In this document: positions 3,905-49,400 of the stretch, in pieces
Position numbering within the stretch: the stretch's first letter is position 1
Layout: each line of letters starts with the position of its first letter
NCBI GenBank assembly: GCA_039881145.1
Contig: JAYKKI010000090.1
Span: 6,049,501 to 6,113,500 of the forward strand
DNA: 64,000 bases
Reading direction: 5' to 3'
Source of the DNA: Druceiella hillmani
Lineage: Eukaryota; Arthropoda; Insecta; Lepidoptera; Hepialidae
Translations under genes and position numbers: made by a program
Notes under the pieces: model-generated
The model's input: the letters and a program-made list of their open reading frames with translations, nothing else
Told to the model about the DNA's origin: nothing
The model's database searches: none

Positions 3905-3973
3905 CAATATTGTTTCTCACAATTAAATGAAACTAAGTGATGTAGTATTATTTCTACTTTCTTTAATTTCTTT

Positions 3974-4016
3974 ACCACGACCTAGGTTTCGTTGTATTAC
4001 AACATCTTCAGGTGGG
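3974..4016 (-). ncRNA. Hammerhead-ribozyme-like core (copy 1, left arm)
   Basis: Reverse complement of the same motif with an identical core: CCCAC, CTGAAGA, stem II GTTGT/ACAAC, GAAA, CCTAGG, TC, GTGGT. Present because the element is an inverted repeat, so a transcript of either strand carries one sense core and one antisense core. Confidence 0.7.
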
Positions 4017-4054
4017 ATATTAGCAAAGATAAGATAAGATATATTTGCTAATAT

Positions 4055-4097
4055 CCCACCTGAAGATGTTGTAATACAACGAAACCTAGGTCGTGGT
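4055..4097 (+). ncRNA. Hammerhead-ribozyme-like core, type I (copy 1, right arm)
   Basis: In order: CCCAC (stem I 5'), CTGAAGA (core box CUGANGA), T, GTTGT-AAT-ACAAC (5-bp stem II), GAAA (core box), CCTAGG (tiny palindromic stem III), TC (cleavage site UH), GTGG (stem I 3', pairs CCAC). All required core bases are present. The very short stem III and the extra base after CUGANGA resemble hammerheads known from Penelope-like elements, which often work as dimers. Activity is not shown. Confidence 0.72.
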
Positions 4098-4479
4098 AAA
4101 GAAATTAAAGAAAGTAGAAATAATACTACATCACGTAGTTTTATTTAATTGTGAATATTGAATTTCTACAAAATTAACGCCAAATATATTCAATATTGTT
4201 TCTAATAAAAATTCCATATATAACTTTTTCTTTACATATTTGCACATTTCATTCGCAAATAAATAATAATGATGAACTATTATTATTTTTCAAAGAATGA
4301 CGGATAAATAGATTTAATCAAGTGCTGCTGTTTTTAATAGTGCAGTAGGGAAAGCAAAAATAAAGTAATTAAAATTTTATTAAAATCAGACGATTTTATA
4401 TTTTTAGAAACCACTCATGCAATGCTTTCGTTAAAAATGTAAAGTTTGGCAAAGATACATCTTATTGTGACTATTGAGT

Positions 4480-5240
4480 ATAAATTTTATTGTGACTAAA
4501 CGACAAAAGAATTTCAATTAATTTGAGAAGATAAAATTAACAAATAATACGTGTTTCGTATTAAAATATTAATACAAAATCACTGTCAGAGTTGCAATGT
4601 CAATGAAAATTAAAGTTACATGTTTTTATAGAAACCCGCTTCAAACATACTCCGTTTTGATGCAGGAAAAAGTGTATATTATGCATACTTATGATTTTGT
4701 ACATCATTCTGAGTAGAAAATGGTAAAGAATTATTTAAACATTTTCAACCGTTTCTGCAAAAATCCTATCAAAAATGCGATTTCAACGGAAACAAAATTT
4801 ACTTTTTTTCATATAAAAACGCTCCAAATGTATTCAGTTTGATGCACATAAACATATCTATTATTCATACAGATAATATTTTTCATCAAACTAAATAGAA
4901 AATGTTTAGAAAGTTCTGAATAAATCACTATCCAAGTTGTGATTTAAACAAGAGAAAGTTACATTTTTTTTATCAGAAACACGCATAAAAAATACTCAGT
5001 TTGATACACATAACGTATATATTATTTGTATAAGTGATTCTGTATATGACTCTGAATATAAAGTGTTAAGAAACTATACGAAAATTATCATTTACTTCTG
5101 AAAAAAAACAACCTTCAAAGTTATAATTTAAATGGAAAAAAAAATATTTAAAAAAAAAAACACGCTTCAAAAACGCACACAGTAACCTGTTTCAATAGTA
5201 GACAAGTTCTTTGTTACAGAGTATAAGCGCCCATAGTGTG
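4480..5240. repeat. Degenerate ~170-180-bp tandem repeat, about four copies
   Basis: Recurring landmarks: ACTCCGTTTTGATGCAGG (about 4650), ATTCAGTTTGATGCACAT (about 4831), ACTCAGTTTGATACACAT (about 4996) and a weaker match near 5175. Each is preceded by AAAGTTACAT(N)TTTTTAT and followed by TATATTATNCATA. Copies are well diverged, so this is an old array. Confidence 0.65.
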
Positions 5241-5705
5241 ATATATTTTCGTCTGATGCCGAGACATACAGTAAAAGAATTTCAGAGGAAATGAAAACAC
5301 AGATTGGAATTTCATTTTTTTGTTTCCTCCCTCTCTTTATACTTATTTGTTATTTTAAGGATAAACATAAATTAGATCTATCAGATTTCAAAAACTGTCA
5401 CCGGATGTCAATTAGAACGGAAAGAAGCGTACTTTAAAAACAAGATTTCTACGAAATTTTAAAAGTGTTGACATGTTGACATTAGTTATTAAGTGGGCTC
5501 TACGAACTTTTGTGGGCGGTAGCGTCCTCTTTGAGAGAATATTGACTGACCTTGAAAAATCGGACTGCTTTCGCCTCAAACACATTACTGGATTTCTCTC
5601 ATACGATTTAATTTCGATCATTTATTCAATGTAAGGAAAATATTTGAACATAACTAAAGGGTAAAAAAGTTAATTGTTGAAAATTATAAAAGAAAGAAAA
5701 ATATA
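5241..5705. other. Intergenic DNA, nothing recognised
   Basis: A 69-codon minus-strand open frame (5412-5621) shows no domain; treated as chance. Confidence 0.4.
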
Positions 5706-6050
5706 TACTGCAGTTTCAGGGATTCCTTAGTCACTGTGGCATAATAGGTAATGAAATAGTCAACATAAAAGCTCAGTTTGCCGTCGTGAACGGGGATCCA
5801 TTTTCACTATTAATTTCATTGAGGATTTCCTCCCCACGACTCGTATTTCTCATATTTCCAGATTCAATCTTTCATACCCACAAAACCTTGGTTCTCAACA
5901 TTTACTTTCCCTCAAAAGGAATCCTCTGTGGTATCCCACATGCGTTTGGGTCATTGTTCTATTCGTACCCATTTGGCTCGACTGCGGGTCAGAGAATCTC
6001 CAATTTGGATTGTGGGCTTGGAGAAGGCGATTTTCATGTCCATTGAATAA
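5706..6050 (+). pseudogene. Remnant of Jockey-type LINE ORF2: end of RNase H region
   Basis: Reading FLSHCGIIGNEIVNIKAQFA resembles the RNase H motif xPSHxGIxGNExADxxAK of Jockey-clade elements. Farther on, in another frame, SVVSHMRLGHCSIRTHLARL and RVRESPIWIVGLEKAIFM resemble the following xxRLGHxxxTHxxx...CxCG...H segment. The expected cysteines are mostly lost, the Asp of GNExAD is Asn, and at least one frameshift separates the halves. Dead fragment; flanks not delimited. Confidence 0.7.
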
Positions 6051-7560
6051 TATATTTCCTTCGTTTATTTATTGAATAATATATTTCATTCAGTTCATAA
6101 GAAAGAACGACGTCAAAAGATATAATTTTTCATAATTTTTATATTCTTGTTTATTTTTGTTTTTATGTTTGTTTGTTTATTTGTATATACTTATTTTGTA
6201 CTCTCGGTATATTATAATCTTATTTTTTTCTTTTTGTTTAATTGTAGCCAACTTCTTATTTAATTTTTGTTTTATTGTATAGTTTATTCTTTTGTTAACA
6301 AGCAACAAAGGCAAATATCTGAAATATGACTTAATCAGTGTTGCTTGGCCTTTTTTTCCACACTTGACATTGGCAAACGTTCTCTCTGGAAAGAACGAAC
6401 GCTATATAATTAAAGATAAAGATAAAGTTTCAGGGATAACCCGCCTCACGAGGTTTGACATGGAATCACATTTAAGAATATTTTTCGTAATATGTTTCAT
6501 ATAATGCTTCCCTACGAGTTCTTTTTAATTTGTTTTAAATATTTGTCCATAGTTTTAAACTTACAAAGTGAGCAAATATTTAGTTGCTTTGATTTATCAT
6601 CCAGAACTTCAGTATTACTTAATTTAGACATGAAAAATTTTGCACAACCGCCATCGGACGTGTGTTGCATCATATTGCAGGTCAAAGTCACTTAATTGTA
6701 ATATAATATGAAAATAAGTAAATGAAACGTATTTTAATTAGTTGGATCGGTTTATATATAGTAGTCTCGTGTATCGAGGGTTCCGTGCCCACTTTCAAGT
6801 AAAATTGTTTTATTTGTCATAATTCAATACTAAAATGAACTTTCTAATACAATAAATATCTAGTAATATCTAAGATAATTAAGTAAGGAGAAAAATATAT
6901 AATATTAATTAAACCGATTATCAACAGATGACTCTGATTAAAATATAAACACTTTTGAGAAATAATATATACAGAATAAAAAAAATTTATTAAACAATTA
7001 CTTTTGATTGTTTGTGAAGGTAATCTTTTAAATAATAGCTCAATTATTGGTTTTTTATGAAGTATTTAGGGAGATATGGCGTACCGACAAGAAACACTTT
7101 TGAGAAACAATTCATAGGAACATTATTTTATTAGAATATTTTATTCTTTAATAGACTTTTAGATCTTGTTACTTTAATATTAATCCAAAAGTTATGCTTA
7201 GATACTTTTTTACTAGATTTCAAAAGTACCGAAATAGATTTCCACCTCTATAGTAAAGAAATAAACTGAGTTTTCCTGCGCCCTCTTTGTCATATACTTT
7301 ATTCTTTTCTATCTTTGTACCTAATTATGTATTAATTATTATACACTTTATCATCGCGTACGTCTAGAATAACATGGTCCTAAGAATAAAAATAGTCAAG
7401 GAAAATTTTTCAATTCTCAATTTTTTTTTATTTTATAAGATTAGCTTGAATTGGTAAGGTTATAAATATAACAGAGACATTAATAACGATCTACCGTACT
7501 TCTATCAACGGCTGTCCCTAATCTGGCGTATAGGGTTGAGAAATCTGCTTGTCTAGATTT
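6051..7560. other. AT-rich intergenic DNA, nothing firm
   Basis: Short open frames at 6292-6504 and 6492-6695 have no recognisable domain and sit next to the LINE remnant; they may be further decayed element sequence. Confidence 0.4.
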
Positions 7561-7564
7561 GCTA

Positions 7565-7755
7565 CTTCTAGTTAAAACGCGCTAATGGAGAAAAGGATAA
7601 AACATGTTATTGAACACTAACGGAGAGAGTCAGCAGTACATGTTAACTTGAACGATAAGTCGTTGGAAACTCGCCCACCAACTTTGTCCGACAAAATTCG
7701 GATATTGTCGGCCGCCGACTCACCAATACAAAAGTCGTTCTTTTGCGTTAGGTGT
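7565..7755 (+). repeat. GCCGACT-family interspersed repeat, copy A
   Basis: Landmarks in order: AAAACGCGCTAATGGAGAAAAGGATA, here AAAACGCGCTAATGGAG then AAAAGGATA, then AAGTCGTTGGAAACTCGCCCACCAA (AAGTCGTTGG / CTCGCCCACCAA), then TTGTCGGCCGCCGACT and AAAAGTCGTTCTTTTGCG. The same order occurs inverted at 52640-52505 and partly at 34135-34275 and 31215-31150. No protein; MITE-like. Confidence 0.65.
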
Positions 7756-8599
7756 AAATGTTACCTTGTGATGAGACATTAATTTGAAAAGAAATCAACT
7801 CAATATTAATGACTTCAGAGATGTGACCTTTTAACTAATTCAAATTATAACTCTTTGAGGTTTTAACCTTTGCTATCTACAATATCTAATTTTAAAGTTG
7901 ATTCTGGTATGTCGAGTTTTATAACTTATGAGCAATTTTCAAGGTTCTTTATGGTAGAACCCGTTAATGTGCGAAAAGAACCTTGAAGTTACTTATCAAT
8001 TTTATCATTATCAATTTAAATAATCATATTGGCAATGTCAACTAATCCTTCGAAGTACACTGTTTTTGTTGTGGGCTTAGTATTTTGCACGTGTTATATT
8101 TCCATATAGTTAAATAAAGAGTCCATAAAACAGTCGTTATGCGAATTTTCTTAAAGGATGCACACTCTCAACTTTAAATGCCGTTAAAAATGCCAGTTGG
8201 CAAGTTTATACCTTATAGTTTAACAGTAGTGTAGCCCGTTATCCCCACCCCTACCGAATTATGTCAGTCACTTATTTCCGTGACGTTTAGTGTCAGCCAC
8301 ACAGGTGTGAGCGTCAGCCACACGGTTCATTTTAGTTAATAATTTAGAATAATCCTTAGTTATCTAGGAGTATATTCTTCATTAGATAACTAGAAATATT
8401 TTTCCTCATATAATTTTTAAATATATTTTCACTAATAAATTTTCACTCGTAGCTATTGATTAAATGATTATATCAGGCTCACTTATAACTTTTGAATTAT
8501 ACTCTAGATAAAACTAAAGGTTGTGAAAATTGGTGGTGACCTATCGGTTCACCGGTAAATTAGTGTTGGAATAAACTTTTTGACATTCTCGGCCCCCAT
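7756..8599. other. Intergenic DNA, nothing firm
   Basis: GTCAGCCACACAGGTGTGAGC and GTCAGCCACACGG form a short imperfect direct repeat near 8292-8325. Nothing else stands out. Confidence 0.4.
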
Positions 8600-8740
8600 A
8601 ACAACGTTTGGCCTTTTCCGTCATCATCGGTCGGATGCGTTCGGCATTCGATTTCTTAAGCGTTACGCAATTTTAGCGTGACTAAAAAAGTTTAACTTCA
8701 AAATGTCGCTAAAGAAGTTTCACTTCAAAAACTTGAAATG
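8600..8740. repeat. Interspersed repeat with AAGCGTTACG...AAGAAGTTTCAC
   Basis: TTAAGCGTTACGCAATTTTA, then GCTAAAGAAGTTTCACTTC. The same order (TCAAGCGTTACACAATTTTA ... GCTAAAGAAGTTTCAG) lies at 50773-50834. The homologous segment extends left with a TCGGCATTCG-like string. Recognised as a common lepidopteran repeat type; class unknown. Confidence 0.6.
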
Positions 8741-9492
8741 TTTAAAAGTAAAAATAATTATTTTTTAAATATCGAAAAATAAATCTACGAATATACTTAA
8801 GATTTGTGCAATATACATATTACAATACAAATATACTAGCTGTCCCTATAACGAAACCTCTTTATTATGGTTTTACGAAATTTATTATGTCATTTCAATC
8901 AATCTTCGACGTATTTTTATGGTATAGCAATAGAACAATTGCAGATATAACATCTACGTAATATAAAAAATATGCATTGAATTTTTTGAATGTAATATTT
9001 TCTTGTGAGTTAAATAGTTAAGAATGCAAGAATGCAAGAAGAATAAAAGAATGCTGAAGTAATTTTATACACAAAGTGACTGTAAGTTTCACCCGACTAA
9101 GTCTCTGTAGCTATATGCATTTCAACATAATTTTAATGTCATGTCACAGTAAGTGAGGCTAATCTCACTACTTGCCACTTTTGAACGGTAAGGGAAATCT
9201 GTTTCTTTTTAATTTCCTCTAGAAACTAGATTTTGCAAATTCTTCGATAGAGATTAAAAATTTCGTAAAAAATTGTTGTCAAACAGTTAACTTCCCAATA
9301 TACGGTTTTCTGATTAAAATAATTTACACATTATTGTTTCAAAATTTAATCGAGTTCCCAAATATAAGAAACAAATGCTTTAACAGTTCTAAAAAGTAAT
9401 GTACCTAAGGTAATGATCCGAAAAGGTAATGCACCTACTAACGTCTACTAACGTTTATGTAAATGGTTTCTATATATTTTGTGTACGTTTAC
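8741..9492. other. AT-rich intergenic DNA
   Basis: TACTAGCTGTCCCTATAACG at about 8836 resembles the edge of a lepidopteran interspersed element; the rest is unassigned. Confidence 0.35.
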
Positions 9493-9600
9493 TAATAGAC
9501 AATATTGAATATATTTGGCGTTAATTTTGTAGAAATTCATTATTCACAATTAAATAAAACTATGTGTTGTAGTATTATTTCTATTTTCTTTTAATTCTTT

Positions 9601-9643
9601 ACCACGACCTAGGTTTCGTTGTATTACAACATCTTCAGGTGGG
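9601..9643 (-). ncRNA. Hammerhead-ribozyme-like core (copy 2, left arm)
   Basis: Reverse complement reads CCCAC, CTGAAGA, T, GTTGT-AAT-ACAAC, GAAA, CCTAGG, TC, GTGGT, an intact core identical to copy 1. Confidence 0.7.
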
Positions 9644-9731
9644 CTATTCTTCTGGATCTTCTAGATAGAAGATCTACTAGATAGAGGATCTACTATCTAG
9701 ATCTTCTAGATAGAGGACCTTTGCTAATATC

Positions 9732-9772
9732 CCATCTGAAGATGTTGTAATACAACGAAACCTAGGTCGTGG
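9732..9772 (+). ncRNA. Hammerhead-ribozyme-like core (copy 2, right arm)
   Basis: CCAT (stem I), CTGAAGA, T, GTTGT-AAT-ACAAC, GAAA, CCTAGG, TC, GTGG. Core intact. Stem I keeps three Watson-Crick pairs and one G-U next to the core. Confidence 0.68.
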
Positions 9773-9989
9773 TAAAGAACTTAAAGAAAGTAGAAATAAT
9801 ACTACATCACGTAGTTTCATTTAATTGTAATAGACAATAATTGAGCAAAATTCAATAGCAGATAAAACAATTTTATTCCCTTTGTTTACACTTGCAATCG
9901 ATTAAGCCTTCTCCGTTTCACTGTTTTAATCACTTTTAGGTTGATAACCCTGAATTGAAATAATGATCAATAATTCAGAAAACACTTAT

Positions 9990-10800
9990 CTTCATAACTA
10001 GTATGTTGAACAAGTTTCGAGAAATCGCGGTCTCCTGCATTTGCATGTTGTTTTATTTACACTCGCTTTGTTCTCACTGCGCGTTACTGAAATTAATGTA
10101 GCTATTAATTATTATGACAAATTACCCATTGCGACAGCGATAGTTTTTATTTCGGTACCGTTTAGGAAACATAAAGCATTAACAACGATTTAACGCAAAG
10201 ATAAATAAAGTATTGCAGCAAAACGTATTCCAAATTGCGTCGCACTGAAAAAGTCCATGAAGTGAAAGTCTACGTACCTTGATATTGGAGAACGACTTTT
10301 ATATACAATTACACGAACGAAGAACGTAAACGAAAGTACTTCTTAAATAAAAATAAGTATCTAAAATAGTTCAAGATAATTTCAGACAACGGGTGATTCC
10401 ATCGATGCCAAGAGGCGAGACGAAACTGAATACATTATAACGAAGTGCGCTCCGACGCCCGTAAAAACGCCATCTCTCTTTCCAGAGAGCGTGTTTACAT
10501 AAAAATGTCAACGGGGCTTGCCCGATTTCGATTCCAATGCTACATGGAAATAAATTCATAGATCCATCAAGGTCTTCGCAGCTTAATAAATAACGAGCGG
10601 ATGAAGGTCATCGCCTCGGAGAGCTTAACGCGCGACATTCGTGTGGCTGAAGTGGCCGCTCTGTTTTACACAATTTAAATTCAATATTTATTTTAAGAAC
10701 GCCCTCGCGCGATCTCACTGTTTCAGAATAATCTTATGCAAAGTGTTATTATGAAACAAAGTTTGGGAAGCGTCTTGTGTTATCGGTTTCAATTAATGCA
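9990..10800. other. Repeat-free, GC-richer intergenic block, possible regulatory DNA
   Basis: Composition is more balanced than the surroundings and no repeat or coding signal is visible. It contains clustered homeodomain-type TAATTA sites near 10100 (ATTAATTATTATG) and CpG-containing words around 10380-10660. The 62-codon minus-strand frame at 10371-10559 has no domain. Inference only: such unique blocks are often conserved non-coding elements. Confidence 0.3.
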
Positions 10801-11515
10801 AATTAGCAAATACAGGTGATGCACTTTTCGATAATTCGATTAAATTATTGTAATACTTGAGCTTCATTGAAAGTTTGAAGTTTTCTTTGTTTACATTAAA
10901 ACTATTTGTCAAGGTCAATGTCAAAATTTTGATAAGTGTGTGGCAGTAAACTAAAAAGTTTTAAAATACAAGCTGAACTTTTTAAGACAAAAAAGACATT
11001 AAGCTCTGTGGGCAGAGCTTTTGTTTAAATACATATGTGAAAAAATAATATTTTTGTAGTACGAAAAGTTACAATCGCATAACATTTTCAAAATTATAAT
11101 ACTTAACTAAGTTACTGGTTTAAACAGGTTAAAGTTAAAATGAGCAAATAAACAGTGATATCCTCAATTAAGAGCTTACGAATTGCAAAGATATGCACTG
11201 CCCGCCCTCCGCGTTTGGTGAGCGCCACAATTATATTGCTGACTCACGTATTCCGTTTATACATAATCAACTCGAATTTGCTAGTTTTTTATTTTGTTTA
11301 CATTCAGCGTTTTACATGGCAAACTGTCGATTCGATAACGATGAACACAATGCGTTGTTAGTGTAAATATTTGCAATAAAAATTATTAATAGCTTTTGTG
11401 TTACAGCACTTTCGATCCGAAAATATGAACGAGTGGCAAAGTAATATTTTTCGTATTAGATGCGAGAAGATCGATCGAGTTAGGATGAGTGATGTCCATT
11501 TTTTGAAGCTGTGTT
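10801..11515. other. Intergenic DNA, nothing firm
   Basis: CTTTTGTGTTACAG at about 11393-11406 resembles a plus-strand 3' splice site, but no credible exon follows. Confidence 0.35.
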
Positions 11516-11543
11516 AGCTAGCTGTGTATAGTGGCTATGTTAC

Positions 11544-11760
11544 CTGTCTGTGCAGCAGATTGGTTCGGGTTCGTGCGCGCGGCGACGACGCCTGAGAGAG
11601 ACTGGCGTCGCGGCGGCCGCGGCTCCCTCGCGCCCGCCTTTTTCTTGGACACGATTATTGAAAGCTTTTTTACGGAGTGTAGATGTTGATTGTACTTAAT
11701 CGTAATTGTATGATGATAGAATATCAAGCACAATCAAACGGCAGGAAGGAAGTTAGTTAA
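11544..11760 (-). other. GC-rich island with minus-strand splice donor: possible first exon
   Basis: A block of over 75% GC with many CpGs (about 11567-11640), in DNA that is otherwise about 30% GC. On the minus strand it ends CACAGACAG|GTAACAT, a good 5' splice site at 11544/11543. An open frame crosses it (KKAGAREPRPPRRQ...) but is basic, Pro/Arg-rich and unlike any family I know. It may be a 5' UTR exon or promoter of a gene to the left; I found no partner exon. Confidence 0.35.
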
Positions 11761-12550
11761 ACTTAATCTGAAGTCAAAATGTATGTGTTAATGCAAGACA
11801 GGAGATATTCATTTACAATTTTGAAAATATGTAATTGGTGAATGATTATAGTTAATAGTACCTCTAGTACTTGTATGTCAAATTTTGTTTATACTACTGT
11901 AACTTCGAAGTAGTTGAACTGATTTCATTAATCAAAATATCGAATAATTCGTCTCAATACTTAAAGTTAAATTAATTAAACGAAGTTGCAGACGGTGGAC
12001 GTTAAACGCCATGCCGCTCGAATGCTTTTGAAAATTTACAAGTGCCGTATAATTTGGAAGATAAAAACCTATTTACCAACCAGTTTTCTTTTCTTCTTAG
12101 GATTTTGATTTAGAAGCTCATGCTTTCCTGCATTAGTTGATGGTTTTTCTTACTTTTTACTATTTTAAGCAATTTAACTTTGAATAATTAAAGGAGTGTC
12201 AACATGAAAAGCAGCCAGCTGACAAAGAACAATTTTGAAATTGATTGGACATTTTCATTAAAAACAAATAAAAAAGCAATACTTACATTTTATTTATATT
12301 TCAAATTAGATTAAATATGCCTGTACTTGTTTGTCATAAATAGTTTAATCTACGTATTTATGTGTGTTTCGTTTTACTGGTATGTAAACTTATTAGATAG
12401 AACATACCAAAATAGTCAAATATTAAAATCAAAAATATTTTTTAATCTAAGAGAACGACTTTCTATACCTTTAAATGAAAACCAGTTTCATGGCCGCCAT
12501 TACATAACTACATTGAATTCATATTTAGGAAAGATTTCTAACGTTTTTAC
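11761..12550. other. AT-rich intergenic DNA, nothing recognised
   Basis: The long open frame starting at 12327 runs into the foldback element at 12564 and is not a gene. Confidence 0.4.
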
Positions 12551-12820
12551 GAATTTTCAATTATTGAATATATTTGGCGTTTATTTTGTAGAAATTCATT
12601 ATTCACAATTAAATGAAACTACGTGTAACCTACTTTAAGTTCTTTACCACGACCTATCTTTGCTTTCTTTAAGTTCTTTACCACGACCTTATGTAATCTT
12701 AGCTAATAGCCCACCTGAGGATGTTGTAATACAACGAAACCTAGGTTGTGGTAAAGAAATTAAAGAAAGTAGAAATAATACTACATCACGTAGTTTCGTT
12801 TAATTGTGAATTTTCAATTA
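12551..12820. mobile_element. Foldback hammerhead element, copy 3, left arm damaged, 13-bp TSD
   Basis: The direct repeat GAATTTTCAATTA lies at 12551-12563 and 12808-12820. The body (12564-12807) starts TTGAATATATTTGGCGT, as in copy 2, and ends CGTAGTTTCGTTTAATTGT. The right hammerhead core is present (12711-12751). The left core is broken: ACCACGACCTA is followed by a duplicated CTTTAAGTTCTTTACCACGAC piece (12666-12687), and the catalytic boxes are missing on that side. Confidence 0.87.
12711..12751 (+). ncRNA. Hammerhead-ribozyme-like core (copy 3, right arm)
   Basis: CCAC, CTGAGGA (N7 = G, allowed), T, GTTGT-AAT-ACAAC, GAAA, CCTAGG, TT, GTGG. The cleavage-site base is U instead of C (still not G, but usually slower). 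Stems I and II pair perfectly. Confidence 0.65.
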
Positions 12821-21810: not shown

Positions 21811-24800
21811 CTGTAACAAATAATCGTAAAATTAATTTCATCTTCTTAATTAGTATATCAAATAGCCAGAAAGTGATAATTAATTAAAGAAAAAATCGTT
21901 GAGCCTAGATACTTTAAAATCGTTTAGTTGCGGTACTTTAAAATCGTTTAGTCGCGGTGTTTCAAAAACGTATAGACACAGTATTTTGAAATCATTTAGT
22001 CGCGCTACTTTAAAATTGTTTAGTCGCGATACTTTAAAATCGCTTAGTAGCGGTGTTTTAAAATCGTTTAGTCGCGGTACTTTACAATCATATAAAAACG
22101 GTACCTTAAAATCGTTTATTCGCGGTACTTTAAAATCGTATAGTCGTGATACTTTAAATTACCAGTTTATTGCGACAATTGTTATTGTCAATTACCAATT
22201 TATTTGCAGACGACAATTGCGATCATATTTGATTACATCATTAACGATATACCCATAAAATATTTCATTAAACTACGTGAATTTAATTTCACATTAAATA
22301 GACGAAATAAATAAGCGCTCATTCATTGAAGTAACGCGAAGATGAGAGTTTTGCAAAACCGTACTTTAAAATTGTTTAGTCGCGGTCCTTTAAAATCGTA
22401 TAGATGTGTTACTTTAAGATAGTTTAGATGCGGTACTTTAAAACCGTTTAGTCGCAGTACTTTAAAATCGTATAGACGCGGTATTTTAAAATCGTCTAGA
22501 CGCGATACTTTAAAATCGTCCGATGGAATATGATTGCGATCGCGTGCGCTATTTTCTACAATCTGATGATTGAATTTTTATTTTGAACACGTCATTTTTT
22601 GCAAGAAATTTTATAAAATCAATGTAATAATCGCCAATATTACATACAGTTAAGAGTGTAATGGCCGTTTTTTAATAATAATGATTTGAGAACATGGATT
22701 TGAGAATACGGATATTCATAAATTTATTTAAAACGATGCGGATGAGGGATAAGTTAAAAAAAATTTAAAAATGGAAAAAGTGAAACGTGAATACGTTTCA
22801 CTTCGGAAAAAAGTGACACGTGAATACGTTTCAAAATATAGAAAATACGAATCCAATGACAGCTATGTGTTTATATTAATTTTAAACTAAAGGTGAATTG
22901 TGTTTTGGTTGGAAAAAAAGTAATGCTATAAAGTTTTAGAACGTTCTGGGACATAGACCTATTAGTGATAATTAGGTCCTGGAACATATTAGATTATGAG
23001 TATATAAACATTCACGGTTAAGTAAAAGAGTAAAAAGGACACAAACCAATTTGTGTATGAATGTTGTACGAGTTAAAAAAAGCAACAGTGCATGTCAGAT
23101 AGCCGAAAACATAAACTCTGCATTCGGCCCCGGTACCATCAGTTTTGTGATAGTAAACCATTAGTATAAACGTTTCACTCTGGAAGATAACAACCTTGAA
23201 ATTAGGGACCGTATCGGCCGACCATGTGAGCTCGATGACTGCACCCTACACCGCGAGACGCAATTGCACCCGAATAAAATTACACGAACGAGGATGGAAA
23301 ATCATTTACATTCGTTTGGCTATAGAAAAGTTCTTACCCGATGGATCACTGGTGTGTTAACTAGAGGTACCTGGACGGCACGAGGTTCCATTTGTCAGCC
23401 TCTCTTCTTGCGCTCCCATCGCAAAGAATTATTAACAGATTTGGTGACCGGAGATGAGAGCTATATTCATTGTGAAAATAACACGCAGTTCGCTTTCTGG
23501 ATTCGGCATGAAGAAGAGCCTCCGGTTCAGTGAAAGAAACACCACCGCCGTAAAGTCCTTTTTTGCTATTATGGGATATACAAGGAATGCTATTCTGGGA
23601 GCTACTCGATGAAAGGAAACTGTCACTGTTAAAGTCTACGCCGGCTAACTGTGTTGTCTTGCTACTGCTATCCAAGGAAACCTTGTAGTAAGTGAATCAT
23701 GATGATATTGTAGTAAGTGAAGGTTCACTTACCATAAGACATTGCTCGGTCGCACGTTATTTCAGTTTCTGGTTGTCAACTAGAGAGGCTGGGCTAGAAT
23801 TCGTTATCTTACACAGCTTATTCATCAGACTTAATACCATCAGGCTATCATCTCGTCTAAGCCCTCAAGAACTTTCTTTTTTTCCAAAAAAGTTTTACGA
23901 TTTTAAAGATACTGAATCGAACCTTGAAACGTTTTTTAACTCCCAGGCTCCAGAGTTTCAGATCGATGGTAACGAGTCTCTGTCTTCGACATGGTCACAA
24001 GTTATTGATGCACATGGTGACTACATTGCAGATTGAAAGTTTTAAATGAGTTATTAAACGAAAATTAAAAGGTTACTAATGTTTCCCTTACTTTCTTGCC
24101 AAACAATACTTTCAGGAAAATGGTTAAAGTTTTGCGTTGGCATCCAGGAGGAGGTGAAAGTAAGTATCAGAGCCTGTAGATATGTATGTACGTACTTAAT
24201 TAAACACGCTTTACGAAAGGTTATAAAACCTAATTGAAGCATCTAATCGACTACGGATTTTTTTTATTTGAAAGCGCTCAGCAAAAAAAATAAAATTACA
24301 AGTTGTAGAACTCAGAAATTCATACCTTGAATTCACCGAAAATAAAAAAACTGACTCGCTGCAAGAATTTCATCAATTTTTAATATTAAATCCTTAAGTG
24401 TAAATATGTCTGTAGTACAACCCTAATTTTATCATAGTAAGTAATTAATTACCTCAAAAGGAAGGACAAACATGTTGTTGTCTGATCTTCGGCCAAATCG
24501 CAGGCGCATGGAAGGAGCTCGTGCTGCTCTGTCTTGGTCCTGGAAGAGGAAATACATTTTGTTGATTATATTGAATTTTGTTGCATAATATTCAGCAAAT
24601 ATTTGTTGCACAATTCTCTGCGGTAATTATGTATCCATCATTGTATTGCTAGCCGGTAAAGTAATCTTTTTGGCCAATGATAGTCAATTATCAGTTTTTT
24701 TGCAGACGGCAATTGTGATCACATTTCATTATATCATTTACGATATATTCATGAAATAATTCATTAAACTAGGATAGGCTAGATGTATTCAGCTGCGTGA

Positions 24801-46400: not shown

Positions 46401-49400
46401 TTGCTTTTTTAAAATAGCAGCTGATGCAAAAACAATCAAATTTTCTATGGTAAATGCAAATACTATAATTTTTATAATATTAACTTTTATTTATGACAAA
46501 AACTACTTACTTGTAACACATGATATTCAATTGTATAATTCTTTTATTAGGTTATTTCGAAAAAGTAAGAAGTTCAACGTTCATTTTTCACCTACTAAAC
46601 CACAATTTAAGGTTATTTTGAGTTATAACGTTGTTCGATTTCAGAGTTTACACGTATATTATCGATTATTTACGGCGCAAGTTATAGATAAATAATTTAA
46701 ACCCAGTATTCATTTTAACATAAGGATTTAAACTACTTAATAAATTAATGAAATTAATATTATGGACAGTTTTTAAAGCAAATATGAATTACATACTTTT
46801 GATTTATCCCCTTTGAAACATTATACGACACATGAAAATAGTTTAAAATATAAGTGGGTTCAATATTTTAGTCTTCAAATGATCAATAAGAATATTTGAG
46901 GTTTTTTCTTATAAAATTGAAAATAAAAATTTAAAATTACAAAGTTACAGCAACTTAAGATTGTTTTTAACTAAATTTTTCACCTTCTCCGGTTCATAAA
47001 ATTTTAATTATTGAAAAAGTATTTAATAAAAGTTTTTTATACAAACAATTTTTTTCTCAGATTTGCGTTTATTGGGATATAAGAGAAAAACTAAATACGC
47101 ATGTTTTCTTTTTAAATGGTGGTCAAATTGGACGAGGTGTTTCCAACCCGAAAACGCGGTATTGCAACTCCAACTAACTCCTTTACTTTAAAAAAAATCG
47201 CTGCTACTCGAAATACCCAATTTGCCTTTTTTCAACGATTTCATTGGATTTTAACTGAAGATCATTTTCTCGAAATAACCAATTTGCCTTTTTTCCATCG
47301 TACGCATTTCGTATCAAATTTGCTTCATCAAAGATCAAATTTGAGTAACTTTCATTTGCGCTCACATCTACAGATGACACTTACACTAGACTAAGCTTAA
47401 TAATATTTTGCACATTGCATAATTATAACTAATACATTTCTATCTTTCTTATGCTCCAAAGAAATGCATTTCATTTTACTGTAAGTGAAATGAAATCAAA
47501 CTTTTTTGAGAAAATAGTGTTTTTCGATTCAATTCACCTTTATTATATGCTCAATAGACAGCGTTATATGTATTTTAAATAGCGGTAATGTTCTTTTTAT
47601 CTTAAAAACTAAATAAACTTAAGCACATTGCATTCTGTAGATTTGATATTAAGTGCATGTGTGACTGTAGATTTGATATTAAGTGCATATGTGACTGTAG
47701 ATTTGATATTAAGTGCAAATGTCACTGTAGATTTGATATTAAGTGCATGTCTGACTCTAGATTTGATATTAAGTGCATATGTGACTGTAGGTTTGATGTT
47801 AAATGCACATGTGATAGTAGATTTGATATTAAGTGCTTATGTGACTGTAGATTTGATGTTAAATGCATATGTGACTGTAGATTTGATATTAATTGCATAT
47901 GTGACTGTAGATTCGATATTAAGTGCATATGTGACTCTAGATTGATGTAAGAACATAAGATCACTAAAATGATTATTGATTTTGTCAAATGTTTTATACT
48001 TCTCTATTAATTAGGATTACTATGTTTTTATATTAATTAAGAAATATTTCGTAATTTAACAATTCTCGGCAAAAAGTTGTGAAATGCTATAAAAAACGTA
48101 AATGTGTTATTTAATTGGTAATTGAACTTTATTATAGTGGCCCATGCAAAAATATTCATTCATAGGAGGATAATATGGTGACTTATATTATCTGATACGT
48201 CACGTAATATAATTATTAAATTTTCTATGGTTTCTCGAGAGAATAAGACCTTTAACTACGGTTGGGTGTACATAACAGTCCACGTGACAAACGTGGATCT
48301 GAAAAGTAAAGTCGGTCGACAGGCGTCCTTTTGTGAATTTATCTGCGAAGGTTAAGCAAATAAAGTGATATTTCTCCCCATTTTCCCCTCCTGGTTTTAT
48401 TTTCATTACGTTTGTTCGTAATAGAGTATTTGCTCCCTCTGATTTAGTTATGCTATTAGAATGGTTTCAAAGTTTCATTTCCATCATTTGAATTAAGGGG
48501 ATGTTTATTGATGTTCATCGCGATAAGGGAGGAACGGATTTATATATTCTGTATAATTTATTTAAAAAAAAAAATATTTAATACGGATATAAATATTAAT
48601 CCGTTATCATTCTGATGAAAATTACTATATTAAAAACAATGAAAATCGTGAAAAAATAATGAAAACTGAAGAAATATGCTAAAAAATAAAGTGTTTTGTA
48701 TTGGCTATTTTTCATAAATTTAACAATTATATGTATCAAAATCTTTATTTGAAATTCATCATTAATTACGCATATGAGGGAAAAGTGGAATGGAATGAAA
48801 AAAATTGACAAGCAGGAGTGGAACTCGCACTACCATAAACATTCCGTAAACATTTATAAACATTTAATGGTATATAATTTCATTATTTTAGGTCAACGGG
48901 AAGTAAAGGTTTTGATCTATTTGAGAGTGTTAAAAAATGCGGCATAAATGGCAGTATTTTTAGGGTTTTTTTATTTCTTTAACTTAGCAGCTTGATACAA
49001 GGGAACGTAGACCTAAATATTTGATATTAATTTCAACTCGATACCTCTATGCGTTCCTGAGAAAAAGCGTTTTGACAGAAAGACAAACAGACGGACAACG
49101 AAGTGATCCTGCAAGGTTTTTTTTTTCCTTTTTTGATAAAATAATAAGAACAGGATTATTTTACGAAAAAACAGTCGAAAAATAAGAACATAATGGTTGA
49201 GGTTTTGATGACGATCAGGAAAATGGTAACTGGGTCTACAAAACGAAACTGACAGCGGTATAACAAATATTGCGAACGTTTTCAACGGTTGGATAATTTA
49301 CTTTCTATAATAATATTTTGCATTTAATACGTGCTTTGTTTAAAGTCATTAATATTTCCCAAATTTTTTAGTACTTTTCCAAACAGTCTGAGCGTACCTA

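What the first reader, a model, noticed from the sequence alone, without database searches (positions are those of the whole stretch)
3905..12820. Foldback element family carrying hammerhead-ribozyme cores on both arms
Three copies (3905-4203, 9493-9843, 12551-12820) share an inverted-repeat body. Each intact arm reads CCAC-CTGARGA-T-GTTGTAATACAAC-GAAA-CCTAGG-TY-GTGG: both catalytic boxes, stems I and II, a minimal palindromic stem III (ACCTAGGT) and a UH cleavage site in type I order. Hammerheads with tiny stem III are known from Penelope-like elements and retrozymes. A head-to-head pair inside a short non-coding foldback means one transcript holds a sense ribozyme and its exact complement, so folding into the long hairpin competes with self-cleavage. 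I know of no description of this arrangement in a lepidopteran neuropeptide locus.
Basis: partly seen in the sequence, partly recalled or inferred. Interest (0 to 1): 0.88.

Follow-up and report, generated by a model that had tools for sequence, protein, structure and literature searches.

The report
Penelope-element hairpins carrying hammerhead motifs
The three hairpin-shaped repeats are small hitch-hiking relatives of a Penelope-type jumping gene whose ends carry a self-cutting-RNA motif, and the same motif occurs tens of thousands of times in this genome, giving a large natural set for studying how these elements copy themselves.

Summary
Window copies at 3905-4203, 9493-9839 and 12551-12820 carry five intact type-I hammerhead cores. 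None reaches Rfam's threshold; Hammerhead_1 fits one arm in register at 16.6 bits, E 0.054, and does not fit copy 3. The unnamed 2.59-Gb genome holds 32,015 exact 34-nt cores; reversed control 0. Typical elements have two inverted ~110-nt arms, a ~40-nt tail on one arm, and 12-13-nt target-site duplications (>=9 nt in 52 of 72 tail-bearing loci; mispaired control 45 of 3000). Locus L081 has the same arms, tail and a 12-nt duplication around a broken reverse transcriptase and GIY-YIG piece. So these are non-autonomous foldbacks of a Penelope-like element (PLE), and the hammerhead sits in its pseudo-LTR. Subfamily variants tend to occur in both arms of an element, so the inverted arm is probably re-copied rather than inherited as a unit. 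Catalysis and in-vivo cleavage are untested; a full transcript folds as a rod that hides the motif. New variant of a known kind.

The parts
3905..3917 (+). copy 1 target-site duplication, left (CAATATTGTTTCT)
   Evidence: direct repeat with 4191-4203
3918..4027 (-). copy 1 untailed inverted arm (pLTR-like)
   Evidence: blastn of arm
3975..4015 (-). hammerhead core in copy 1 untailed arm; predicted cut between 3979 and 3978
   Evidence: descriptor, motif
4044..4153 (+). copy 1 tailed arm (pLTR-like)
4056..4096 (+). hammerhead core in copy 1 tailed arm; predicted cut between 4092 and 4093
   Evidence: descriptor; Rfam Hammerhead_1 16.6 bits in register, below the gathering score of 34
4152..4195 (+). 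copy 1 tail (one-sided); its last bases overlap the duplication
4191..4203 (+). copy 1 target-site duplication, right
9493..9504 (+). copy 2 target-site duplication, left (TAATAGACAATA)
9503..9546 (-). copy 2 tail
9545..9648 (-). copy 2 tailed arm
9602..9642 (-). hammerhead core in copy 2 tailed arm
9720..9828 (+). copy 2 untailed arm
9732..9772 (+). hammerhead core in copy 2 untailed arm (C-to-T in stem I keeps a U-G wobble)
9828..9839 (+). copy 2 target-site duplication, right
12551..12563 (+). copy 3 target-site duplication, left (GAATTTTCAATTA)
12562..12605 (-). copy 3 tail
12604..12689 (-). copy 3 tailed arm, scrambled, no hammerhead
12699..12808 (+). copy 3 untailed arm
12711..12751 (+). 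hammerhead core in copy 3 untailed arm (N7 = G, H17 = U); no Rfam hammerhead match
12808..12820 (+). copy 3 target-site duplication, right

Best explanation
The three features are insertions of a very abundant, non-autonomous, ~266-bp Penelope-like element (PLE) derivative made of two inverted pseudo-LTRs (pLTRs) plus a one-sided tail. I infer that it is mobilised in trans by a PLE of the same family; a broken copy of such a PLE, L081, has the same arms, tail and a 12-nt duplication around RT and GIY-YIG pieces. The hammerhead is the motif of the PLE pLTR, with a 2-bp stem III closed by a palindromic CUAG loop. Inferred cycle: target-primed reverse transcription starts at the tail, copies the tailed arm, reaches the palindromic loop (simplest form TTAGCAAAGATCTTTGCTAA), and then snaps back or switches template to make the inverted arm; both arms would thus come from one template in most cycles and the loop would vary from copy to copy. 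Shown: structure, duplications, one coding relative, arm concordance. Inferred: trans-mobilisation, snap-back or template switch. Open: whether the hammerhead cleaves. In the full foldback RNA it should be locked in the rod; it could act in RNAs holding only the tailed arm, or as a dimer through the palindromic stem III.
For: 32,015 exact 34-nt cores in the genome, control 0. Flanking repeats >=9 nt in 52 of 72 tail-bearing loci (72 of 82 loci had a tail in the element read), most often 12 nt, vs 45 of 3000 mispaired flanks. L081: RVT_1 E 1.1e-11; GIY-YIG E 2.7e-4 and an inverted second piece E 1.5e-4; 12-nt duplication TATACGTGAAAT outside the same arm and tail ends. L082: a longer foldback with 363-nt arms sharing part of this interior. 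L043: a tailed arm alone, beginning at the loop centre, flanked by a 13-nt repeat with one mismatch (read by eye), as 5' truncation would give. Arm concordance: in 40 tailed-untailed pairs, 29 shared derived letters vs shuffled mean 7.8, maximum 17 in 2000; three common variants are in both arms of 10 of 11, 7 of 10 and 7 of 11 elements carrying them, two rarer ones in 2 of 2 and 2 of 2. Published PLE anatomy fits: inverted pLTRs, palindromic junctions, 31-bp tail on one pLTR, duplications of 8, 9 and 10 bp (PMC3846280, passages); hammerhead in the PLE pLTR, tail explained by internal RT initiation, AT-rich cutting (PMC11167929, passages and section 3 part 1).
Against: No Rfam gathering-level hit, no hammerhead at E 10 in 9.2 kb, none for copy 3 alone. 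GIY-YIG scores lie just under Pfam's cutoff (21.6 and 22.4 vs 22.6); the coding link rests on one broken locus. The duplications here (mode 12) are longer than the 8-10 bp in the passages read, and 20 of 72 loci show none of >=9 nt. 84 of 125 near-full arms pass the strict descriptor, and one-arm substitutions are about as dense inside the hammerhead (47 in 41 columns) as outside (87 in 69): no sign of selection on individual copies. On arm re-copying: the shuffle test alone would also be passed by units inherited with the marker in both arms; many recurrent variants are one-arm only (of letters at variants seen in 3 or more elements, 24 in both arms, 53 in one), and A-to-G at column 72 is tailed-only in L008 and L023. 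Discordant elements (L035) and copy 3, whose tailed arm is scrambled while the other is whole, do not fit plain snap-back of one cDNA. The search for copies starting exactly at the cleavage site did not complete.
Confidence: 0.85

Rival explanations
1. A cut-and-paste DNA transposon derivative (MITE or Foldback type) with long terminal inverted repeats; the hammerhead resemblance is accidental.
For: Inverted-repeat body, no long ORF; three copies in 64 kb.
Against: Variable 12-13-nt duplications, a tail on one end only, a copy cut off at the loop (L043), and an RT plus GIY-YIG interior in L081.
Confidence: 0.05
2. PLE foldback as in the best explanation, but the hammerhead is an inherited passenger with no catalytic role in these short elements.
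For: The rod fold far outweighs the hammerhead fold; no excess conservation of the hammerhead after insertion; foldbacks without it exist (L030 2933-3087); in the anole PLE hammerhead cleavage was not a necessary step for insertion in vitro and no reads began or ended at the site (PMC11167929, passage).
Against: 32,015 exact cores suggest that source elements kept it intact; either RNA strand of an intact two-arm copy presents one sense core.
Confidence: 0.45
3. A metazoan non-LTR retrozyme: tandem monomers transcribed, cut by the hammerhead, circularised and reverse-transcribed.
For: Type I layout, similar size, low GC, duplications longer than 4 bp, as described for metazoan retrozymes (PMC7229834 section 13). 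One locus, L049, does hold two tailed arms in direct tandem.
Against: By eye, the other loci read are inverted pairs, single arms or rearranged forms rather than direct tandems of whole units, so a typical transcript has a single sense hammerhead.
Confidence: 0.05
4. The foldback moves as a fixed unit; arms of a source were alike (for example after gene conversion) and descendants inherit both.
For: Both arms would share subfamily markers in this case too; some recurrent variants are confined to one arm.
Against: It needs several independent markers (five seen in both arms of at least two elements) each to have spread to both arms of a source, while one-arm changes after insertion are common and unrepaired (139 one-arm letters in 40 pairs). 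Confidence raised from 0.20 to 0.25 on re-checking that the shuffle test does not exclude it.
Confidence: 0.25
5. The hairpin serves the host as a Dicer substrate (hairpin siRNA or miRNA-like).
For: About 115-bp near-perfect hairpin in copy 1; 13 of 16 permissive Rfam matches in 9.2 kb are miRNA-precursor models, 10 of them on the elements, E down to 1.3e-15, all below their gathering scores.
Against: Such matches are expected of any long hairpin; no small-RNA data; tens of thousands of dispersed copies.
Confidence: 0.05

Closest known systems
Penelope-like elements with inverted pLTRs (e.g. Pen families of Adineta vaga)
   Same: Inverted pLTRs, palindromic junctions, one-sided tail, short target duplications, RT plus GIY-YIG in the larger member, other sequence captured between pLTRs (PMC3846280, passages seen).
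   Different: Here the pLTR pair without coding interior is the mass-produced form (32,015 exact cores genome-wide), and duplications are mostly 12-13 nt rather than the 8-10 bp in the passages.
PLE hammerhead ribozymes (Cervera and de la Pena 2014; Lunse et al. 2017)
   Same: Minimal type I with little or no helix III, in the pLTR, able to act as dimers; known to me from citing passages and reference lists; the two papers are not held.
   Different: Carried as an inverted pair, so a typical transcript has one sense core and its complement. The extra U before stem II resembles the U10 variant that I recall from de la Pena and Flores 2001 (only the reference seen).
Metazoan non-LTR retrozymes (PMC7229834)
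   Same: Short non-autonomous elements with type I hammerheads and duplications longer than 4 bp (section 13).
   Different: Direct tandem repeats there; inverted pair here, with one tandem exception (L049).
MITEs / Foldback DNA transposons
   Same: Long inverted repeats, short, non-coding, abundant (recalled).
   Different: Retro-type duplications, one-sided tail, RT-bearing relative.

Membership tests
Penelope-like element (non-autonomous member) | RT and GIY-YIG endonuclease in a larger member with the same ends | tested here: met
   L081: RVT_1 E 1.1e-11; GIY-YIG E 2.7e-4 and 1.5e-4, just under Pfam's cutoff; same arms and tail. Broken copy; one locus only.
Penelope-like element (non-autonomous member) | Inverted pLTRs with optional one-sided tail | tested here: met
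   tail in 72 of 82 loci; layouts; single-arm and rearranged forms also occur
Penelope-like element (non-autonomous member) | Short target-site duplications at AT-rich sites | tested here: met
   >=9 nt in 52 of 72, control 45 of 3000; AT-richness seen by eye only, in an AT-rich genome
Penelope-like element (non-autonomous member) | RT falls in the PLE/telomerase-related clade on a tree | not tested
   No tree built; four unnamed relatives only
Type I hammerhead ribozyme | CUGANGA and GAAA boxes, UH cleavage site, three stems in type I order | tested here: met
   Five arms in the window, with one extra U after A9
Type I hammerhead ribozyme | Covariance-model score above the Rfam gathering threshold | tested here: not met
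   16.6 bits vs 34 for one arm; no hammerhead match for copy 3 or. PLE hammerheads are described as minimal variants lacking helix III
Type I hammerhead ribozyme | Self-cleavage | not testable with these tools
   needs in vitro transcription
Metazoan retrozyme | Direct tandem repeats giving circular RNA | tested here: not met
   inverted pairs are the typical form in the loci read; exception L049 with two tailed arms in tandem; circular RNA not testable
MITE / Foldback DNA transposon | Symmetric terminal inverted repeats with fixed short duplication and transposase relative | tested here: not met
   one-sided tail, 12-13-nt variable duplications, RT relative

The most novel reading that the evidence does not exclude
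A PLE lineage has turned its pLTR into a 'snap-back' parasite: each round re-creates the inverted arm from one tailed arm by self-priming at a palindrome, and the hammerhead acts only on single-arm RNA, so that cleavage decides between making a foldback copy and a truncated one. Tens of thousands of copies would record this process.
Probability: 0.2. Interest if true: 0.85.

Novelty: new variant of a known kind. Interest (0 to 1): 0.62.

Why it matters
The role of PLE hammerheads and the origin of PLE inverted pLTRs are presented as open in the passages read. A family with 32,015 exact hammerhead cores, short enough to read through, with recognisable ends and copy-specific loops, makes both testable: arm concordance already leans towards re-copying of the inverted arm, and the positions of 5' ends could show whether RNA is cut at the ribozyme site in vivo.

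Tried and rejected
DNA-transposon (MITE) reading: rejected on duplication length, one-sided tail and L081. Retrozyme reading: not favoured because inverted pairs, not direct tandems, are typical (one exception, L049). Rfam gathering search: nothing; permissive search of 9.2 kb: 16 matches, 13 of miRNA type, no hammerhead. Exact 27-nt core in viral contigs: 0. Conservation of the hammerhead within copies: no signal (on a smaller set showed fewer changes in it in tailed arms and more in untailed arms than in the 3' flank). The samples were chosen by similarity to copy 1 (L002-L040, of 40 scored among 330 candidates) or by carrying the exact core (L041-L080, the first 40 sites listed on contig C1), so a test for constraint at source level is not valid on them and is not claimed. 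Interiors of single arms: eight 5-kb stretches fetched; L081 and L082 gave a clear paired element. RT homologues: 4 unnamed hits, uninformative on clade. Gene content of the window: 0 of 8 ORFs with a Pfam match. Papers: eight searches, of which I saw listings (20 of 62 and 15 of 32 papers listed); no title or abstract told of a hammerhead-bearing PLE foldback; the library lacks most subscription papers.
Full report
WHAT IS THERE. A strict hammerhead descriptor (stem I >=4 bp, CUGANGA, 0-1 extra base, stem II >=4 bp, GAAA, stem III >=2 bp beginning with the A15.1-U16.1 pair, UH, stem I) finds these five arms and nothing else on either strand; in 533 Mb of simulated sequence it hits six times, 0.0014 per window. 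It was fitted after the fact. Rfam finds nothing at gathering level and no hammerhead at E 10 in a 9.2-kb stretch; with one 57-nt arm alone Hammerhead_1 aligns from end to end in register, 16.6 bits against a cutoff of 34, E 0.054; copy 3's arm gives no hammerhead match. Changes among the five cores are three: a stem I C-to-T that leaves a wobble pair, N7 A to G, H17 C to U. All are allowed, but three changes prove little.

ENDS. Each window copy is bounded by a 12-13-nt repeat of its own: CAATATTGTTTCT, TAATAGACAATA, GAATTTTCAATTA. One arm ends ...CATTTAATTGTG; the other goes on for about 40 nt (the tail). 72 of the 82 loci examined have a tail in the element; 52 of those 72 have a flanking repeat of >=9 nt, most often 12 (23 of 52); mispaired flanks give 45 of 3000. 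20 of 72 show no such repeat.

GENOME. The window lies in an unnamed 2.586-Gb assembly of 181 contigs. The 34-nt core pattern has 15,984 forward and 16,031 reverse exact matches; the reversed control none. That average would give about 0.8 exact cores per 64 kb; this window has five. The first 40 sites listed on contig C1 show full two-arm elements, elements with one arm partly deleted, and single arms; one, L049, has two tailed arms in direct tandem. L043 is a single tailed arm starting at the loop centre and flanked by a 13-nt repeat with one mismatch (by eye), as a 5'-truncated retro-insertion would be. The loop in its simplest form (e.g. L071) is a palindrome, TTAGCAAAGATCTTTGCTAA; many copies differ at its centre.

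THE CODING RELATIVE. Two single-arm loci, L053 and L069, shared about 300 nt of interior at 86%. Fetching 5 kb on the inner side of eight loci gave L081: an untailed arm at 2146-2255, a tailed arm from 4943, the 12-nt repeat TATACGTGAAAT outside both ends, and between them a broken reverse transcriptase (RVT_1, E 1.1e-11) followed by a GIY-YIG piece (E 2.7e-4; a second, inverted piece E 1.5e-4; both just under Pfam's cutoff). The element is itself a large foldback: 0.9-1.0 kb of its 3' part is repeated inverted at its 5' end. L082 is intermediate, with 363-nt arms. The other six stretches gave no clear pair. RT and GIY-YIG between inverted, tailed, hammerhead-bearing pLTRs is the anatomy described for PLEs (passages of PMC3846280; passages and section 3 part 1 of PMC11167929; passages of PMC6155905). 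The tail contains ATGAATTTCTACAAAATTAACGCC, open to its end; PLE pLTR and tail are reported to reach into the ORF start, but I have no full-length copy to prove it here.

HOW IT COPIES ITSELF. I aligned 125 near-full arms (64 tailed, 61 untailed) and compared the 40 tailed-untailed pairs of single elements. Letters differing from the majority are shared by both arms of one element 29 times; shuffling partners gives 7.8 on average and at most 17 in 2000. Three common variants are in both arms of 10 of 11, 7 of 10 and 7 of 11 elements that carry them, two rarer ones in 2 of 2 and 2 of 2. The shuffle shows that the arms of one element belong to one subfamily; that a subfamily's variant sits in both arms and not in one is what argues for re-copying. 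Against this stand 139 one-arm letters, 53 of them at variants seen in three or more elements; I take most of these as later, partly recurrent mutations, but some could be arm-specific inheritance (A-to-G at column 72, tailed arm only, in L008 and L023). The simplest reading is that both arms come from one template in most cycles, by snap-back at the palindromic loop or a template switch; self-priming was proposed for PLE inverted repeats in PMC3846280, there on an antisense template. L035 and copy 3 of the window, whose tailed arm is scrambled while the other is whole, do not fit a strict form.

WHAT THE RIBOZYME MAY DO. The full copy-1 RNA folds as a rod of -184.5 kcal/mol; the hammerhead fold of a 46-nt arm is -4.8 against a minimum of -8.9; two 74-nt arms paired through the palindromic stem III give -25.0, better than two separate minima (2 x -10.1), though another dimer fold is -29.4. 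So the motif should be silent in the full foldback and possible in single-arm RNA or dimers. Within copies the hammerhead is no better conserved than the rest: 47 one-arm changes in 41 columns against 87 in 69; 84 of 125 near-full arms pass the descriptor. Whether source elements keep it for a function cannot be judged from these samples. The search for copies beginning at the cleavage site did not complete.

VERDICT. PLE hammerheads and inverted pLTRs are known; a mass-amplified pLTR-pair element, and evidence leaning to re-copying of its inverted arm, I did not see in the listings of eight searches.

Noticed in passing
L030 2933-3087 and L006 834-990: Related foldbacks with the same ends but no hammerhead core; the ends seem enough for a recognisable element.
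   Followed up: partly
L049: Two tailed arms in direct tandem inside one element: an RNA from it would hold two sense hammerheads.
   Followed up: no
L038 486-1013: Element with two extra partial copies of the untailed arm, each breaking at CCTAGGTTT near stem III and joined by ATAGATAATATATT.
   Followed up: no
L064 and L065: 32 nt next to the single arm of L064 reappears inside the loop of L065, as if flanking sequence had been carried along.
   Followed up: partly
window 3975-12751: Five exact cores in 9 kb against about 0.8 expected per 64 kb from the genome count: a local cluster.
   Followed up: no
window 23165-23533: ORF that looked like a mariner transposase fragment by eye; Pfam gave no match at E 0.01.
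   Followed up: partly
window 47606-47950: Minisatellite-like repeated ORF (CDCRFDIKC units) open in two frames.
   Followed up: no
L086 3050-3256: ORF that looks by eye like a Copia-type RNase H piece, between foldback arms that I could not pair.
   Followed up: no
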